Shown here: piece after piece, positions 35,024 to 50,863 of the stretch
How positions within the stretch are numbered: the first letter of the stretch is position 1
How the letters are laid out: every line of letters begins with the position of its first letter
Assembly (NCBI GenBank): GCA_951799425.1
Contig: OX637393.1
Coordinates: forward strand, 28,877,744 to 28,941,743
Direction of reading: 5' to 3'
Length of the DNA stretch: 64,000 nt
From: Ilex aquifolium
Taxonomy: Eukaryota; Streptophyta; Magnoliopsida; Aquifoliales; Aquifoliaceae
Notes under the pieces: generated by a model
The model's database searches: none
What the model saw: the letters and a program-made list of their open reading frames with translations, nothing else
Told to the model about the DNA's origin: nothing
Translations under genes and position numbers: made by a program

Positions 35024-35418
35024 AAATTATCAGAATTAATTACCAATCTACAACAGATTTAAAACATAAATACCAAAGTACAACAATTTTGAACTTAATT
35101 ACCATTCTACAACACTTTTTAAAAGCGGAATCAACAAATCCGATTTCATGTGAAAGCGGAATCAGCAACTACGAATTCATTTGAAAGCGGAATTAGAAAT
35201 TACGAACTCATCATTAAATCGGATTTGTAGAATCCGCTTTCATATGAATTCGTAATCCTCACATCCGCTTTTAAAACAATAGTGTGTCCACTGAAAGCGC
35301 ATTCAACACATCCGCTTTTATTAAAAAGCGGACTGAACACAACCGCTTTTTAATAAAAGCGGATGTGTTGAATCCGACGTCTAGTGCAAGCGTATTTAAT
35401 TCATCCGCTTTCAAATGC
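35024..35418. repeat. Left terminal inverted repeat of the MULE
   Basis: About 395 bp, inverted to 38897-39224. It contains roughly ten AAAGCGG or CCGCTTT boxes in alternating orientation spaced about 25-45 bp. Several pair with one another, so each arm is itself partly palindromic. Confidence 0.8.
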
Positions 35419-39869: not shown

Positions 39870-40299
39870 ACTTGTTGTTACGAGCTTGAATATGCCAAAC
39901 ATGAATCACGATTTCGTTGCTTCCTCGCACACCAAAATCTTGTCAAGGCAAAGGAGTGGCTACCATAGTTCCTCCTTGTAATCCCACGTTCACAAATCCA
40001 AGGGCCATTGGTGATAGGCCAAGAGAGATAATATGTGTAGAGAAATGTATCACACGTACCTCTTAGATGTTTAGAGACAAATATTTATAGGTGATTGTAA
40101 CCACTTAGATAAGCATGATTCCATGATCTCCTAAACTGATTAGGAGATAGAGATATATCTCCTATAATCTCCTAAACTAATTAGGAGATAGAAACATATC
40201 CCTAACTGACCACCAATGAATGGGTCAAGCCCAGTTGCCCCATGTGGGTAGATTAAGGTTAGTGTTCGGGTCCAAATACTGGCTTATAAAATACTAACA
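39870..40299 (-). repeat. 3' LTR of the copia fossil
   Basis: Starts with TG directly after the polypurine tract. Contains repeated CTCCTAA/TTAGGAGAT text at 40128-40200. The end near 39870 is approximate. Confidence 0.6.
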
Positions 40300-42815: not shown

Positions 42816-43990
42816 CAGGGGCGGAGCCAGACATCTTCTCCAGTGGGGGCAACTTAAACTATATTAATATTAAAATTTAAAATATTCACAAAAATATAAT
42901 TTTATTAATAAAACACCAATTAAAGACACAATTCATATACATGAGTGATATACAAAAGGAGCCAACAAAAAAAAAGTCGTTATAGATTTATCTATAAGAC
43001 CTAACAAAAAAAATTTGAACCGCAAAATTGGGCTAAATCATATATTAAATTTTAAGAAAAATTTTCATAACTAATTCAAAAATTAATTTGTTCAATCACA
43101 AACTTAATATTCATCATTAAATTTTAACAAACAATCGAAACTAACTTAAACTATAATTATTCTAGTAAACTAAACTTAGGTATATGAAGTACTTAACTTA
43201 TCACAATAAAACTATTCAAACTACCAAATCAAAATAATTTAGTCTAATTATAATGGAGGACTACAAGTCTCAATTCCAATTCTACAAATAAAAATAAAAC
43301 AAATGAGACGACTACAAGTCCTAATTCCAATTCAACATATAAAAATAAAACACTAGAGAGGACTACAAACTCAAATATCAATTAAATATATAAAAAAATA
43401 AATCATAGAAGAGGACAAACCCCAATTTTATTTCAACATAGAAAAATAAATACAGGACTACAAATCCTAGTTTCAATTCAATACATAAAAAATAAAACAT
43501 AAGAGATGATTACAAGCCCCAATTTCATATTTTCAATTCAACACGTAACAAATAAAATACGAAAGAGAGCTACAAACGCTAATTTCAATTCAACATTTAA
43601 AAAATAAACCACAAACTACAAACCCTAATTTTCAATTCTATCATATAAACATAAAACAAAGAAGAGGACTACAAGCCCCAAATTTAGTTCAATGTATAAA
43701 CATAAAACAAATGAGAGGGCTAACCTATTTCGTAGCATATTAGTTAATCTTTAAATGCCCAAATTTTTGATATCATCTTCCATTGATATCATCTTCCATT
43801 GATATTCACAAGTGAGACTCATATATTTGTCAAAATAACATAACTACCCTTAAATCTTTTAAAAAAAATTCAGTGGGGGCAAATCTTTAATAAATTCTAA
43901 ATTTTTTAAAATTATACTTAGTCCCCAAAATTTTTTAAAATTCCAGTGGGGGCAGCTGCCCCCACTGCCCCCACTGTGGATCCGCCACTG
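42816..43990. mobile_element. Non-autonomous hAT element, copy 3 (1175 bp)
   Basis: Left end CAGGGGCGGAGCCA, right end with reverse complement CAGTGGCGGATCCA. It is flanked by a perfect 8-bp duplication, CAGTCGGT, at 42808-42815 and 43991-43998. AGTGGGGGCA is present just inside both ends. No transposase. The interior is largely a degenerate tandem array. Confidence 0.93.
43255..43725. repeat. Degenerate tandem array, unit about 55 bp, 8-9 copies
   Basis: Successive units follow the pattern GGACTACAAG, CCCCAATTTCAATTCAACA, TA(A)nTAAAACA, (A)GAGA, with substitutions and indels in each copy. It fills about 40 percent of hAT copy 3. Confidence 0.8.
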
Positions 43991-45502: not shown

Positions 45503-45507
45503 AATAC

Positions 45508-46456
45508 TGATGATACCCAAAATACACCCTAGACACGAGCTTAGAAAGAGAGCTCAGCTCAGGAGTTCCGGGAAAACAAGCAGAACTCATCCAGCCAGGG
45601 ACTGAGCTCTGCCAGCTGGTATTAAAACTCCCAGCTAAGGACACGAGATAAACAGTACCAAGGGGACAACAAGGTGACACCGGATACCATTATAAAGGAA
45701 GTAGAACCAATCCAATTCAAATAAGCTAAGAAAGCCCAAAGAAGAGTCCAATCCATTACCCAAGCCCAAGCCCACTAAAGAGAAAATTCTAGAGAATGTT
45801 AGATAAGAATTTGAATGTTAGATAAATATTTGAATGTTAGATAAATATTTGAAGGTTAGATTTGAATGTTAGATATATATTTGAAGGTTAGATTTGAATG
45901 TTAGATAGGTATTATTTAATTTGTGTGGTTTGGATTGATTCACGTTGTACGGCTAGGATTGATTCCCTACTACTATAAATATACCACCCATTTGGGTGTT
46001 CTAGCATCAAGAAAGAAGCAAAGCTTCTAAGAGTGAGTTTGAGAGAGAGTTCTCTTGAAATTCCTAGTATGCTCTGTGGTTGCAGTTTAGACTGATCTGC
46101 CACATCAGAAAAGATTTCTAGAGATTGAGAGTGTAAGTTGTGAGCTTCCTATTGAGTGTTTGCTTCTCTCCCTCTCTCCCTCTCAAGCATTGTAAAACTC
46201 TCCGGAGTACCACCATGATTGATCAATAAAACATCCAGGCCATCGTCGCCGTTCGAAGAGTGGACGTAGGTCATCCGAGACCGAACCACTATAAATCTCT
46301 TGTGTGGATCTCTTTACTATTGTTTTGCCATTTATTTACCATTGATTGCTCATTAATCACCCTTGTGACTATTGATATAGCACCACGTTCGCATCTCCCG
46401 TCAGTACGACCAAATAATCCAGTCCCATAGCTCATACGCGCAGGTTTACACCATCA
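45508..46456 (+). repeat. 5' LTR (949 bp)
   Basis: Contains a TATA-like CTATAAATATACC near 45974, a run of six or so GAATGTTAGATA/GAAGGTTAGATT repeats at about 45792-45912, and AATAAAA near 46226 as a candidate polyadenylation signal. Confidence 0.95.
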
Positions 46457-46519
46457 GTTTGGCGCCGTCTGTGGGAACGACTGTTCCTTCTTACAAATAA
46501 ACTGATCCTTCAGTGACTG

Positions 46520-48874
46520 ATGGTAACAACACGCAATATGAGCAGAAGTCAAACAAACCTACCACGGATGCAAGACCAGCAAGAAGCTACCAACGCCAGA
46601 CAACCCGGAAATCTCCCAGAGGACAATTCTCCTGTCAATAACGAGATGGAGGCCCTTCGCCTCGTCAATCAGCGTTTACTAAGGGAGAACGCAGAGCTAT
46701 CAAGGCTCGTACAGCGCCCACTGGAGGCACGGCCGGCCCAAGAAGGCCAGTACAATCCCCCTCATAGGGACCAACGACACTGGGACCCCCTTAGAGAGGT
46801 CAGCGAAGGAGGAGAAGGCAGCCAGACCAGGGGACACACTCCTTACATACCCCCAAGGAATGGTCATAACGACGAAGGACAAAGTCAGAACAACGAGGGT
46901 GACAGGGATGACTTTTTCCCTTATCCGCAGGATAGGAAAGAGCAACGCTGGGAGCAACGCTTCAAAGACATCCAGCAGGAGCTCAGCCACATGAAGGAGG
47001 CTGTAAAAAGCAAGGCTCCAGTTACAATGGATGTCCTAGTTCAGCAAACCGAATCCCCATTCACCACGGGAGTGCTACACTTCCCTCTCCCACCAAAATT
47101 CAGAATGCCTCAAATAGAGGTCTTTGACGGAACGAAAGATCCCGTGGATCACCTCAATACCTACAAGAACCAGATGGAACTGCATGGATACCAGGATCCT
47201 GTGCGTTGCAGAGCTTTCGCCATCACATTGAAAGGTTCCGCCCTAGCCTGGTTTCACAGACTCCCACCAGCCTCGATCCCATCTTTCAAAGAGCTCTCCA
47301 TAGCTTTCGTATCTCACTTTATAGGAGCCCGGACATACAGAAAGCCGAGCTACCACCTGCTGAACGTGAAACAGGGGCCTCAAGAAAACCTGAGGTCCTA
47401 TGTCCAAAGGTTTAACTCAGAGACACTAAAAGTAGATGTTCCAGATGAAAAATTTGCCATTACTGCCTTTATTGCGGGTTTGGGAGTGCAGTCAAAGGAT
47501 ATGATGTTCTCCATATCAAAGAACCCTCAGGCAAGCATGGCCGAGGTGTTGGCCAAAGCAGAGAAGTACATTAATGGTGAAGAGGCACTTCTCTCCAAAG
47601 TAGGGGACACGTCCTCGCGAAGGGAGAAGGAGAAAGAAGAGAAAAGAAGGGACCGAAGTCCCAAGAAGGAAAGAGGGCGAGAAAGGTCCCCCAGAAGGGA
47701 TAGGGATCGTTCGCCAGAGAGAAGAGGAAATGTCAGAGATCGCCTGGGCCCCATGCAGCCTGAACTACAGCCCAGATATGGACCTCAACGATTCACCCCA
47801 CTCACTGCCGCTGTGTCGCAGGTTCTATATGAGGTCCAAAACGAGGAGTTCTTACGATGGCCACCCCGGATGAAGGCGGATCCAGCCAAAAGAGACCCCA
47901 CTAAGTACTGTGATTACCACCGAGATCATGGTCACCACACTGATGACTGTATTCAGTTAAAGAAGGAGATTGAGTTCTTGATCCAGCGAGGTCAGCTGCG
48001 CCGTTTCGTAGCCTATGACAACCAGAACCGAGCTCTTCCACCTCCACCGCCTCAGCAGCAGGCACCTGTGCCACATCAGCAGCCTCTGGGTGAGATCAGA
48101 GTAATATCTGGAGGGTTTGCGGGAGGCGGAGAATCTAGCTCAGCCAGGAAGGCACACCTCCGCCGGATCAGAGCCGAAGAAGCTCTCGAAGTGCACGCTG
48201 TATCCAAAGTACCACGCTTGGATACAACTATCACTTTTTCAGACGCAGATTTAGAGGGGTGCCAGTACCCTCATGATGACCCATTGGTGGTGCGAGCTGT
48301 GGTGGCTAATAGAACCGTTCATCGGATCCTAATCGACAATGGGAGCTCGGCGGATATCATTTTCGCACCCGCGTTTGACAAGATGGATATAGGAAGGCAG
48401 AGACTTGAGCCAGTAAGCACCCACTTGTTGGGATTCTCTGGGGAAAAGGTGCTCCCCTTAGGCTCAATTCAGCTCGTGCTCACCCTGGGGGACCCACCTT
48501 GCCAGGCCACTACCACCGTAAAATTCCTAGTGGTCGATGCACCCTCGGCACACAACATCTTGCTTGGAAGGCCATCCCTTAACTCTATCAAGGCGATCCC
48601 ATCTGTCTATCATTTAGTCGTGAAATTCCCTACAGATAGCGGAATAGGAGTGGTCCGAGGAGACCAGCGTGTAGCAAGAGAATGTTACATGGCATCTGTA
48701 AAAAGGAAAGAGGTTGAGAACATCCAACTGGATGAGCTTGACATGAGAGATGAGCTAGAAACGAGACCAATGCCCTCAGAAGAGTTGGAGCCAGTACAAC
48801 TTGATGGGGAACTACGAATTGCAAACAGAGGAAGGAAAGGTCCTACCTCATTCATGGAATGCCGAGCACCTTAA
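46520..48874 (+). CDS. Retrotransposon gag-protease polyprotein, 784 aa
   Basis: One open frame. Residues about 195-310 form the gypsy gag domain (PF03732-type; text such as VDHLNTYKNQMELHGY and ALAWFHRLP). About 370-405 is Arg/Ser/Glu-rich. A zinc-knuckle-like motif follows at about 464 (CDYHRDHGHHTDDC). Near 606 is the aspartic-protease active site in the retroelement form DNGSSADIIF. Gag would form the virus-like particle and the protease would cut the polyprotein. The frame is much longer than chance and its base composition is far less AT-rich than the surroundings. It looks whole. It stops at 48874 with no pol frame after it. Confidence 0.93.
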   Translation: MVTTRNMSRSQTNLPRMQDQQEATNARQPGNLPEDNSPVNNEMEALRLVNQRLLRENAELSRLVQRPLEARPAQEGQYNPPHRDQRHWDPLREVSEGGEGSQTRGHTPYIPPRNGHNDEGQSQNNEGDRDDFFPYPQDRKEQRWEQRFKDIQQELSHMKEAVKSKAPVTMDVLVQQTESPFTTGVLHFPLPPKFRMPQIEVFDGTKDPVDHLNTYKNQMELHGYQDPVRCRAFAITLKGSALAWFHRLPPASIPSFKELSIAFVSHFIGARTYRKPSYHLLNVKQGPQENLRSYVQRFNSETLKVDVPDEKFAITAFIAGLGVQSKDMMFSISKNPQASMAEVLAKAEKYINGEEALLSKVGDTSSRREKEKEEKRRDRSPKKERGRERSPRRDRDRSPERRGNVRDRLGPMQPELQPRYGPQRFTPLTAAVSQVLYEVQNEEFLRWPPRMKADPAKRDPTKYCDYHRDHGHHTDDCIQLKKEIEFLIQRGQLRRFVAYDNQNRALPPPPPQQQAPVPHQQPLGEIRVISGGFAGGGESSSARKAHLRRIRAEEALEVHAVSKVPRLDTTITFSDADLEGCQYPHDDPLVVRAVVANRTVHRILIDNGSSADIIFAPAFDKMDIGRQRLEPVSTHLLGFSGEKVLPLGSIQLVLTLGDPPCQATTTVKFLVVDAPSAHNILLGRPSLNSIKAIPSVYHLVVKFPTDSGIGVVRGDQRVARECYMASVKRKEVENIQLDELDMRDELETRPMPSEELEPVQLDGELRIANRGRKGPTSFMECRAP

Positions 48875-48966
48875 GAAGTTTTTTCAGTAAGTGTTACTTG
48901 TAATAGGGCTATTTTTTAAAGGAGCAAATCTTTTATTCACCTTTCAAAGACATCCAAAGCAAAGGC

Positions 48967-49590
48967 ATGAGCTCTTCAGCTCATAAATGCACGATAAGCT
49001 TCAAAGCTTATAAATACAAGATGAGCTCTTCAGCTCATAAATGCACGTTAAGCTTCCAAAGCTTATAAATACAAGATGAGCTCTTCAGCTCATAAATGCA
49101 CGATAAGCTTCCAAAGCTTATAAATACAAGATGAGCTCTTCAGCTCATAAATGCACGATAAGCTTCAAAGCTTATAAATACAAGATGAGCTCTTCAGCTC
49201 ATAAATGCACGATAAGCTTCAAAGCTTATAAATACAAGATGAGCTCTTCAGCTCATAAATGCACGATAAGCTTCCAAAGCTTATAAATACAAGATGAGCT
49301 CTTCAGCTCATAAATGCACGATAAGCTTCCAAAAGCTTATAAATACAAGATGAGCTCTTCAGCTCATAAATGCACGATAAGCTTCAAAGCTTATAAATAC
49401 AAGATGAGCTCTTCAGCTCATAAATGCACGATAAGCTTCAAAGCTTATAAATACAAGATGAGCTCTTCAGCTCATAAATACACGATAAGCTTCAAAGCTT
49501 ATAAACAAAAGATGAGCTCTTTGAACTCATAAACAAACGATAAGCTTCCGAAACTTATAAAAAGCAAGATGAGTTCTATAGCTCCTCAGC
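48967..49590 (+). repeat. Tandem array of 54-55 bp double-hairpin units
   Basis: About ten near-identical units, then one or two worn ones. Each unit contains hairpin 1, ATGAGCTCTTCAGCTCAT (7-bp stem, CTTC loop), and hairpin 2, ATAAGCTTCAAAGCTTAT (8-bp stem, 2-base loop). They are separated by AAATGCACG and AAATACAAG spacers. Differences between units fall mostly in the hairpin 2 loop (CA, CCA or CCAA), while stems are kept. The array lies between the gag-protease stop and the polypurine tract, so it would be in the 3' part of the genomic RNA. Confidence 0.92.
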
Positions 49591-49889
49591 TCGTGCAAGC
49601 CTCTAGGCTCGTCAAATTAAAGGCTGATCTCATCTTGGAGACACCAACAGTCCTTGTACACCGCCTACCCACTCAAATATGTTCAGAATAGCAGGGAAAC
49701 ACCTACGAAGTCAGAAGGGACGTGGGCTTAAACATGCGCGAGAATCGAGGAGGCCATGATTGCCAGGAAACCGTCAAAAAGGCAGTACCTCTGCACAACT
49801 CTAGTCTGATTCTAGCTCGGTGTAAAAACAGCTCTAGTCTGATTCTAGCTCGGTTTAAGATAGCTCAGCCCCTGTCCAAGCTCGCTTGA

Positions 49890-49909
49890 GCCAAGGGCTG
49901 GGGGGCAAC
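49890..49909 (+). other. Polypurine tract of the young element
   Basis: AAGGGCTGGGGGGCAAC directly before the right LTR at 49910, the expected plus-strand priming site. Just upstream, CTCTAGTCTGATTCTAGCTC is present twice (about 49798-49850). Confidence 0.75.
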
Positions 49910-50858
49910 TGATGATACCCAAAATACACCCTAGACACGAGCTTTGAAAGAGAGCTCAGCTCAGGAGTTCCGGGAAAACAAGCAGAACTCATCCAGCCAG
50001 GGACTGAGCTCTGCCAGCTGGTATTAAAACTCCCAGCTAAGGACACGAGATAAACAGTACCAAGGGGACAACAAGGTGACACCGGATACCATTATAAAGG
50101 AAGTAGAACCAATCCAATTCAAATAAGCTAAGAAAGCCCAAAGAAGAGTCCAATCCATTACCCAAGCCCAAGCCCACTAAAGAGAAAATTCTAGAGAATG
50201 TTAGATAAGAATTTGAATGTTAGATAAATATTTGAATGTTAGATAAATATTTGAAGGTTAGATTTGAATGTTAGATATATATTTGAAGGTTAGATTTGAA
50301 TGTTAGATAGGTATTATTTAATTTGTGTGGTTTGGATTGATTCACGTTGTACGGCTAGGATTGATTCCCTACTACTATAAATATACCACCCATTTGGGTG
50401 TTCTAGCATCAAGAAAGAAGCAAAGCTTCTAAGAGTGAGTTTGAGAGAGAGTTCTCTTGAAATTCCTAGTATGCTCTGTGGTTGCAGTTTAGACTGATCT
50501 GCCACATCAGAAAAGATTTCTAGAGATTGAGAGTGTAAGTTGTGAGCTTCCTATTGAGTGTTTGCTTCTCTCCCTCTCTCCCTCTCAAGCATTGTAAAAC
50601 TCTCCGGAGTACCACCATGATTGATCAATAAAACATCCAGGCCATCGTCGCCGTTCGAAGAGTGGACGTAGGTCATCCGAGACCGAACCACTATAAATCT
50701 CTTGTGTGGATCTCTTTACTATTGTTTTGCCATTTATTTACCATTGATTGCTCATTAATCACCCTTGTGACTATTGATATAGCACCACGTTCGCATCTCC
50801 CGTCAGTACGACCAAATAATCCAGTCCCATAGCTCATACGCGCAGGTTTACACCATCA
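49910..50858 (+). repeat. 3' LTR (949 bp)
   Basis: Same length as the 5' LTR and, by eye, one difference (near position 34 of the LTR). Confidence 0.95.
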
Positions 50859-50863
50859 AATAC

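What the first reader, a model, noticed from the sequence alone, without database searches (positions are those of the whole stretch)
48967..49590. Array of about twenty small perfect hairpins in a young gag-only retrotransposon
Seen: about ten 54-55 bp units, each with two different perfect inverted repeats (7-bp stem with 4-base loop; 8-bp stem with 2-4 base loop), with variation mostly in a loop. It sits between the gag-protease stop and the polypurine tract. Inference: the array could act in the RNA (packaging, dimerisation, nuclear export or stability) for an element that must borrow pol, or it could be neutral slippage. Stem retention with loop variation favours structure, but the units are so alike that recent homogenisation is an alternative.
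Basis: partly seen in the sequence, partly recalled or inferred. Interest (0 to 1): 0.72.

Follow-up and report, generated by a model that had tools for sequence, protein, structure and literature searches.

The report
Hairpin repeats in plant jumping genes
A tandem array of about twenty tiny hairpins sits in the tail of a plant retrotransposon; it was inherited from full-length parent elements, changes its length quickly, and keeps its hairpins while the letters between them drift, which makes it a good place to ask how such arrays arise and whether they do anything.

Summary
The array is real: window 48967-49584, about 11.4 units of 54 bp, 10 A and 10 B hairpins. It lies in a young 5.3 kb gag-only LTR element (LTRs differ at 1 of 949 bp), which is a roughly 3.1 kb internal-deletion derivative of a Tat-like Ty3/gypsy family. 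Full-length copies carry the same array just behind pol, so it is not tied to borrowing pol. All 42 copies sampled by their pol end have it, with 5.6 to 23.7 units although the first 30 have pol ends listed as 100% identical. Across 64 arrays the majority unit differs at 9 of 18 spacer columns and 0 of 36 hairpin columns: family-wide variation is in spacers, not loops. Covariation is weak: no two-sided change in 638 core units; three compensated pairs (one is the A/B difference, the others in degenerate or related units) against many uncompensated changes. Junctions of other defective elements fall at or inside the array. Best reading: a known kind of hypervariable 3' UTR repeat, turned over by copying jumps, whose hairpins persist because they promote the jumps or have a cis RNA role; these are not separated. 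A neutral array remains possible.

The parts
45508..46456 (+). 5' LTR (TG...CA, 949 bp)
   Evidence: identical to 49910-50858 but for position 45543; boundaries read
45503..45507 (.). target-site duplication AATAC, left copy (right copy 50859-50863)
   Evidence: sequence
46460..46476 (+). probable primer-binding site tggcgccgtctgtggga, 3 bp after the 5' LTR
   Evidence: sequence; the assignment is recalled, not tested
46520..48874 (+). gag (to protease-like) ORF, 784 aa
   Evidence: PF03732 Retrotrans_gag E 2.7e-15; PF13650 below cut-off
48806..48811 (+). GGGGAA, where similarity to the pol end of full-length copies begins: junction of the internal deletion
   Evidence: about 3.1 kb missing, from the spacing of protease and pol-end hits; whether the protease side also had GGGGAA was not read
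48806..48890 (+). remnant of the pol 3' end (..WNAEHLKKFFQ and stop), out of frame with the gag ORF
48967..49584 (+). hairpin array, about 11.4 units of 54 bp: A hairpin, 9-nt spacer, B hairpin, 9-nt spacer
48967..48984 (+). first A hairpin ATGAGCT-CTTC-AGCTCAT (10 copies, last begins at 49458)
   Evidence: fold -7.2 kcal/mol
48994..49011 (+). first B hairpin ATAAGCTT-CA-AAGCTTAT (10 copies, last begins at 49485)
   Evidence: fold -5.0 kcal/mol
49512..49584 (+). degenerate last units, shared with several related copies
49585..49909 (+). rest of the 3' UTR, with the probable polypurine tract (ggggggcaac before TGATGAT; recalled assignment)
   Evidence: full-length relatives have about 357 extra bases here
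49910..50858 (+). 3' LTR

Best explanation
The array is the family-specific, hypervariable 3' UTR tandem repeat of a Tat-like Ty3/gypsy retrotransposon, kept by a gag-only copy that lost about 3.1 kb of pol and has since multiplied to at least four near-identical copies. Shown: full-length copies carry the array at a nearly fixed place behind pol; its edges are stable while the number of inner units changes quickly; hairpin modules stay constant in array majorities while spacers drift; defective relatives have junctions at or inside the array. Inferred: unit gain and loss, and the junctions, arise by template jumps during reverse transcription of co-packaged RNAs, and units with intact hairpins take part in these jumps more readily, so the hairpin module maintains itself. 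A cis-acting RNA role may add to this.
For: Full-length parents: arrays follow the integrase end in 8 of 9 loci translated (domains), with protease and pol end 3.2 kb apart in relatives such as C12:25.74M, C8:2.53M and C9:32.40M against about 0.1 kb in the window. Turnover: 5.6-23.7 units among 30 copies whose 300-bp pol ends are listed as 100% identical to the query; gag-only copies L003 and L004 each lack one, different, unit of the window's array. Hairpin constancy: 0 of 36 hairpin against 9 of 18 spacer columns differ from the guide unit in the majorities of 64 arrays (chance 9.1e-6 if columns were independent, 0.012 if only four independent changes). Variants present in two or more units of an array: spacer 105 against 93 single-unit, stem 16 against 64. 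Junctions: L023 joins the protease region to the array at a 14-nt near-match (13 identical); L013 and L094 join foreign sequence at a B hairpin start, L026 at an A hairpin. Published view: such repeats are hypothesised to arise by abnormal strand transfer between co-packaged copies (PMC7004042, Discussion section read).
Against: Reverse-transcription jumps were not observed; DNA-level unequal exchange would give the same arrays. Counting each allele once, stem and spacer do not differ in propagation (9 of 32 against 17 of 38 alleles, p 0.21). In the 14 arrays chosen by array sequence alone there is no difference either (spacer 16/29, stem 6/16, p 0.59, terminal units included). Some broken-stem variants were propagated (T1>C in 3 arrays). 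Junction evidence rests on three junction types in five loci.
Confidence: 0.5

Rival explanations
1. The hairpins are a cis-acting RNA element (packaging, dimerisation, export or stability), kept by selection on the element in full-length and gag-only copies alike.
For: 42 of 42 copies read by pol end carry the array, and so do seven further pol-end places already in hand (L005, L007, L014, L015, L017, L020, L021), the lowest with 3.8 units; array kept by three kinds of defective element; hairpin letters constant against spacers in array majorities; two-sided changes G-C/G-U/A-U at stem pairs 3 and 5 and one C-G at pair 2; a related family has different repeats with hairpins showing U-A, U-G and C-G at one pair.
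Against: One-sided inherited stem changes are 18 pair-keeping (G-U) against 34 pair-breaking cells, with no clear excess of pair-keeping; no two-sided change in 638 core units; 3 of 6 loci of a related defective family lack this array and 9 of 9 loci of a more distant family lack it.
Confidence: 0.2
2. A neutral, satellite-like tandem repeat: one palindromic 27-mer happened to be amplified and homogenised; hairpins have no role and their constancy reflects few independent changes.
For: Within-array homogenisation is strong; spacer differences may trace to few lineages; hairpin-rich tandem repeats also occur elsewhere in the window, 3 of 22 control units being as extreme against shuffles (0 of 200); allele-level test not significant.
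Against: Hairpin columns are 36 of 54 yet hold none of the nine columns with differences in array majorities, although single-unit changes do occur in stems (64 events).
Confidence: 0.25
3. The constancy is at the DNA level: the 18-bp palindromes are sites for a DNA-binding protein or for palindrome-templated repair.
For: Loops are conserved along with stems in array majorities; stem changes show no clear bias towards those that keep a G-U pair in the sense RNA, as a strand-symmetric cause predicts.
Against: Templated repair of stems would not by itself keep the loop; no binding site was identified; TATA-like letters across the B stem and spacer are not conserved, because columns 47 and 49 vary.
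Confidence: 0.05

Closest known systems
Hypervariable 3' UTR tandem repeats of Tat-lineage (Ogre/Retand) plant retrotransposons
   Same: Same position (pol to 3' LTR), family-specific unit, variable array length (PMC7004042 Discussion; PMC11963269 Discussion)
   Different: Here each unit is two short hairpins that stay constant while spacers drift; 'hairpin', 'inverted' and 'secondary structure' have 0 occurrences in the main text of PMC11963269, and 'hairpin' 0 in PMC7004042
TR-GAG elements (LTR elements with only gag)
   Same: LTRs, gag ORF, no pol domain found, several near-identical copies
   Different: This one is traceable to a full-length family in the same genome and keeps an out-of-frame pol remnant and the array; the definition of TR-GAG is recalled, only a search listing was seen
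MIR8024 (Rfam RF03567, reported from potato: passages of PMC7811781)
   Same: Minus strand of the array matches the whole 86-position model at 33.2 bits, E 0.0008; the model consensus printed is itself a repeat of hairpin-like units
   Different: Below the gathering score of 57.3 everywhere (best 34.1 in L007); a structured-shuffle control reached the alignment score in 3 of 2000, for one family picked out of 4227; not accepted as homology

Membership tests
Tat lineage (Ogre/Retand) of Ty3/gypsy | second, archaeal-type RNase H between RNase H and integrase in full-length members | tested here: inconclusive
   RVT_3 (PF13456) 73.4 bits and, over the same stretch, RNase_H (PF00075) 31.1 bits, both above cut-off, lie upstream of the integrase region in full-length copy L055; the region further upstream was not read. 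Criterion from passages of PMC6317226
Tat lineage (Ogre/Retand) of Ty3/gypsy | position in a reverse-transcriptase tree | not tested
Tat lineage (Ogre/Retand) of Ty3/gypsy | tandem repeats between pol and 3' LTR (common, not defining) | tested here: met
TR-GAG (gag-only LTR element; definition recalled) | two LTRs, gag domain, no pol domains | tested here: met
   only gag matched above cut-off in the ORF; the pol remnant is 85 nt
TR-GAG (gag-only LTR element; definition recalled) | mobilised in trans | tested here: inconclusive
   four near-identical copies with the same protease-to-array spacing of 187 bp imply movement after the deletion; the helper was not shown
MIR8024 | reaches the Rfam gathering score | tested here: not met
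   at best 33.2 bits in the window and 34.1 in 15 loci searched, against 57.3
RNA structure conserved by covariation | compensated changes in excess over broken pairs | tested here: inconclusive
   47 inherited hairpin variants, 329 cells: 3 of 7 pairs with two-sided change; 24 cells two-sided, 18 one-sided and paired, 34 unpaired. Number of such pairs reached by 386 of 500 shuffles; cells paired, two-sided cells and covariation score by 0 of 500, a control that ignores relatedness

The most novel reading that the evidence does not exclude
The 18-nt hairpins are a self-propagating module: hairpin units act as preferred strand-transfer sites in reverse transcription, so they expand themselves, resist decay while spacers drift, and serve as landing pads by which defective elements pick up or keep a working 3' end; sister families evolved arrays of unrelated hairpins for the same reason.
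Probability: 0.2. Interest if true: 0.65.

Novelty: new variant of a known kind. Interest (0 to 1): 0.4.

Why it matters
Tandem repeats in the 3' UTR of Tat elements are a known source of plant satellite DNA (PMC7004042), but their origin and function are stated to be unknown (PMC11963269, Discussion). Here one genome holds many recent copies with nearly identical pol ends and very different arrays, with spacers as an internal yardstick and defective relatives that show where sequences were joined. That makes both questions directly testable: do hairpins drive array growth, and does the element need them?

Tried and rejected
Loop variation as the main variation: rejected for the family, true only inside the window's array. 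Link to borrowing pol: rejected, since full-length copies carry the array. TATA boxes: the B unit reads TATAAATA across the stem-spacer border, but columns 47 and 49 vary. MIR8024 homology: not accepted. Strand-specific test (changes that keep a G-U pair against those that make A-C): no clear bias, propagated 8 against 6, single 29 against 20, transversions 2 and 15. Architecture test: 6 of 10 unit rows from 3' UTR arrays of this element and its relatives, against 3 of 22 other tandem-repeat units of the window, reach 2 or fewer of 200 shuffles; the related rows are not independent, an LTR repeat did not (52 of 200), and two of the 22 controls (46313, 48731) lie in the element's own LTR and gag; simple, short and overlapping rows were left out. 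Literature searches on hairpin or stem-loop repeats and on strand transfer in retrotransposons listed no paper that, from title and abstract start, describes this (one search found none).

Filters and dropped rows: one search left out 41 full units of 64 arrays (over 5 differences from their array's majority, or over 2 inserted bases); one search also left out the last two full units of each array, because terminal units hold old changes. Inserted bases, such as the longer B loops of the window, are not counted as column differences. The arrays of L091, L094, L095 and L097-L104 are not among the 64 (L091 is the place of L026, which is). From the inherited variants, four B variants were left out of the covariation alignment: two for length (16 and 20 nt) and two found in one array only; the second hairpin (type D) of the 40-bp units was not tested. 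L065, L071 and L075 missed the automatic pol-end match and were parsed.

Full report
What is there. The window holds an LTR element at 45508-50858 with LTRs of 949 bp that differ at one site, flanked by the 5-bp duplication AATAC. Its long ORF, 46520-48874, has a Retrotrans_gag domain; a protease-like stretch is below the Pfam cut-off. From 48967 to 49584 lies the array: 11.3 to 11.4 units of 54 bp, each made of two 27-mers, hairpin A (ATGAGCT-CTTC-AGCTCAT) and hairpin B (ATAAGCTT-CA-AAGCTTAT), each followed by a 9-nt spacer. There are 10 A and 10 B hairpins. A single unit folds as two hairpins (z -3.3). The whole array folds far better than shuffles (z -12, 20 shuffles), but a chain of small hairpins and a long nested fold compete, so the RNA form is not settled.

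Where it comes from. The assembly has 800 Mb. The window array gave 87 matches from 40 scored of 1114 first-look candidates, so counts are lower bounds; a 35-base pattern occurs 498 times, its reversed control 0 times. In 8 of 9 other loci translated, the array follows a pol ORF end (..SWNAEHLKKFFQ or ..KRFFQ, stop), which carries integrase domains in the copies scanned; in 27 copies the array starts 61-67 nt behind that stop, in the window 76 nt. The window copy keeps the last 85 nt of that ORF out of frame behind gag. In relatives such as C12:25.74M, C8:2.53M and C9:32.40M the protease hit ends 3.2 kb from the pol end; in the window about 0.1 kb. The window element is therefore an internal-deletion derivative of a full-length family; similarity to the pol end begins at GGGGAA (48806-48811). 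Four near-identical gag-only copies exist (C3:28.9M, C2:7.6M, C3:3.4M, C7:6.1M), so it moved after the deletion. An RVT_3-type RNase H lies upstream of the integrase region in a full-length copy, which fits the Tat lineage (passages of PMC6317226) but does not prove it.

How the array varies. To avoid choosing arrays by their own sequence, copies were taken by pol-end hits. (Two of the three query pieces, from L006 and L045, came from copies first found by their array; the third, L020, by its 3' flank.) From 40 hits, 30 loci were read; from the 80 hits places were read. All 42 carry the array, as do seven further places already in hand (L005, L007, L014, L015, L017, L020, L021). Among the first 30, listed as 100% identical to the 300-bp query, the array ranges from 5.6 to 23.7 units; among the 12, from 6.8 to 12.3. 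The shortest seen were 3.6 to 4.0 units (L020, L021, L023, L026). The ends of the arrays are similar within a sub-lineage, while inner units are gained and lost. Two gag-only copies each miss one, different, unit of the window's array.

Hairpins against spacers. For 64 distinct arrays (50 found by pol end or 3' flank, 14 by array sequence or the window itself) the majority unit differs from the guide unit at 9 of 18 spacer columns and at none of 36 hairpin columns, loops included. If columns were independent, nine of nine in spacers has probability 9.1e-6; if only four independent changes lie behind it, 0.012. Leaving out terminal units, variants present in two or more units of an array against single-unit variants are 105 against 93 in spacers (18 columns), 16 against 64 in stems (30 columns) and 8 against 14 in loops (6 columns): stem p 3.1e-7 against spacer by events, which are not independent; 0.047 without C>T and G>A; 0.21 when each allele is counted once. 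By columns, terminal units included, a propagated allele is seen in 7 of 30 stem, 12 of 18 spacer and 3 of 6 loop columns (stem against spacer p 0.0055). In the 14 array-chosen arrays alone the event test shows nothing (p 0.59). So stems are hit by mutation, but such changes seldom spread through an array; loops are intermediate. This could be selection, biased amplification, or few independent changes.

Compensation. In 638 core units no stem pair had changed on both sides. Over 47 inherited hairpin variants, including degenerate end units and units of related arrays, three of seven pairs show two-sided change: pair 3 (G-C, G-U, A-U; it separates A from B), pair 5 (G-C, G-U, A-U; the intermediate ATGAGCT..AGTTCAT lies near ATGAACT..AGTTCAT in the same array of L094), and pair 2 in one variant. 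Against this, one-sided changes were 18 pair-keeping and 34 pair-breaking cells, and the number of pairs with two-sided change is not above shuffles (386 of 500 reach it); cells paired (89.7 against 86.1%), two-sided cells and the covariation score exceed all 500, but that control ignores relatedness. Covariation is suggestive and not proof.

Relatives. A defective family with unrelated inner sequence has LTRs 92-97% like the window's where they match. Of six loci read, three carry this array (L091, L094, L095) and three do not (L092, L093, L096). L094 and L095 carry one B-type and several A-type 27-mers followed by 40-bp units, some with a compensated A hairpin, and a second hairpin, TGAGC-CACGCA-GCTCA. 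The three without it carry other repeats in which CTGTT-CTCA-AACAG, CTGTT-CTCA-AGCAG and CTGCT-CTTA-AGCAG occur; of 15 such hairpins found by outside anchors in these three loci 11 are fully paired. Nine loci of a more distant family that share the 3' UTR end and LTR start lack this array; TRF shows no comparable array before the match, though L036 has unrelated simple repeats. The array sequence is thus replaceable, and in some relatives absent.

Junctions. L023 is a second deletion type: its protease region runs into the array at ATGAAAGATGAGCT, where the window's protease sequence has ATGAGAGATGAGCT and the array of L013 has ATGAAAGATGAGCT. L013 and L094 pass from ..CAAGGGTCGCC into CGATAAGCTTC of the array, where L092 has ..CAAGGGTCGCCAAAAAGCTTGG; L095 looks the same as L094. 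L026 passes from an A-rich stretch into GAGCTCTTCAGCTCAT. These fit jumps between templates at the array, a mechanism already proposed for such repeats in general (PMC7004042, Discussion), but they are few.

Judgement. Its kind is known: family-specific tandem repeats between pol and 3' LTR of Tat-type elements, with origin and function called unknown (PMC11963269, Discussion). What seems less ordinary is the modular conservation, hairpins constant and spacers free, together with fast unit turnover and junctions at hairpins. I favour copying jumps with hairpin-favoured propagation (0.5), then neutral homogenisation (0.25), a cis-acting RNA role (0.2) and a DNA-level cause (0.05). The corrections made on checking (identity figure, minimum unit number, junction position) did not call for other odds.

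Noticed in passing
window 49156-49229 (minus) and other places in the array: Weak full-length match to the Rfam family MIR8024 (33 bits, below gathering); the consensus printed by the search is itself a repeat of hairpin-like units, which suggests that the potato locus may be a similar repeat.
   Followed up: partly
window 35294-35363, 40126-40204, 43767-43805: Other tandem repeats of the window with units that fold much better than shuffles (z -5.0, -6.5 and -4.0), outside this element.
   Followed up: no
window 45794-45893 and 50196-50295: The LTRs contain their own 19-bp tandem repeat (GAATGTTAGATAAATATTT, 5.6 copies), with other copy numbers in relatives.
   Followed up: no
L005, L014, L015, L017, L020 between the matches to window 49720 and 49714: Relatives have about 357 extra bases in the 3' UTR, near the place where the window element has two copies of a 33-bp repeat (49795-49858).
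   Followed up: no
L013, L026, L091-L096: Defective LTR family with an inner region that has no Pfam match in the one piece tested, A-rich stretches and a G+C-rich inverted repeat (GGGCCAGCCGCCCATGTGGGCGGCGCC in L026).
   Followed up: partly
L029, L031-L038: A further family sharing about 160-260 bp across the 3' UTR end and LTR start at 76-79% identity, with different upstream ORFs.
   Followed up: partly
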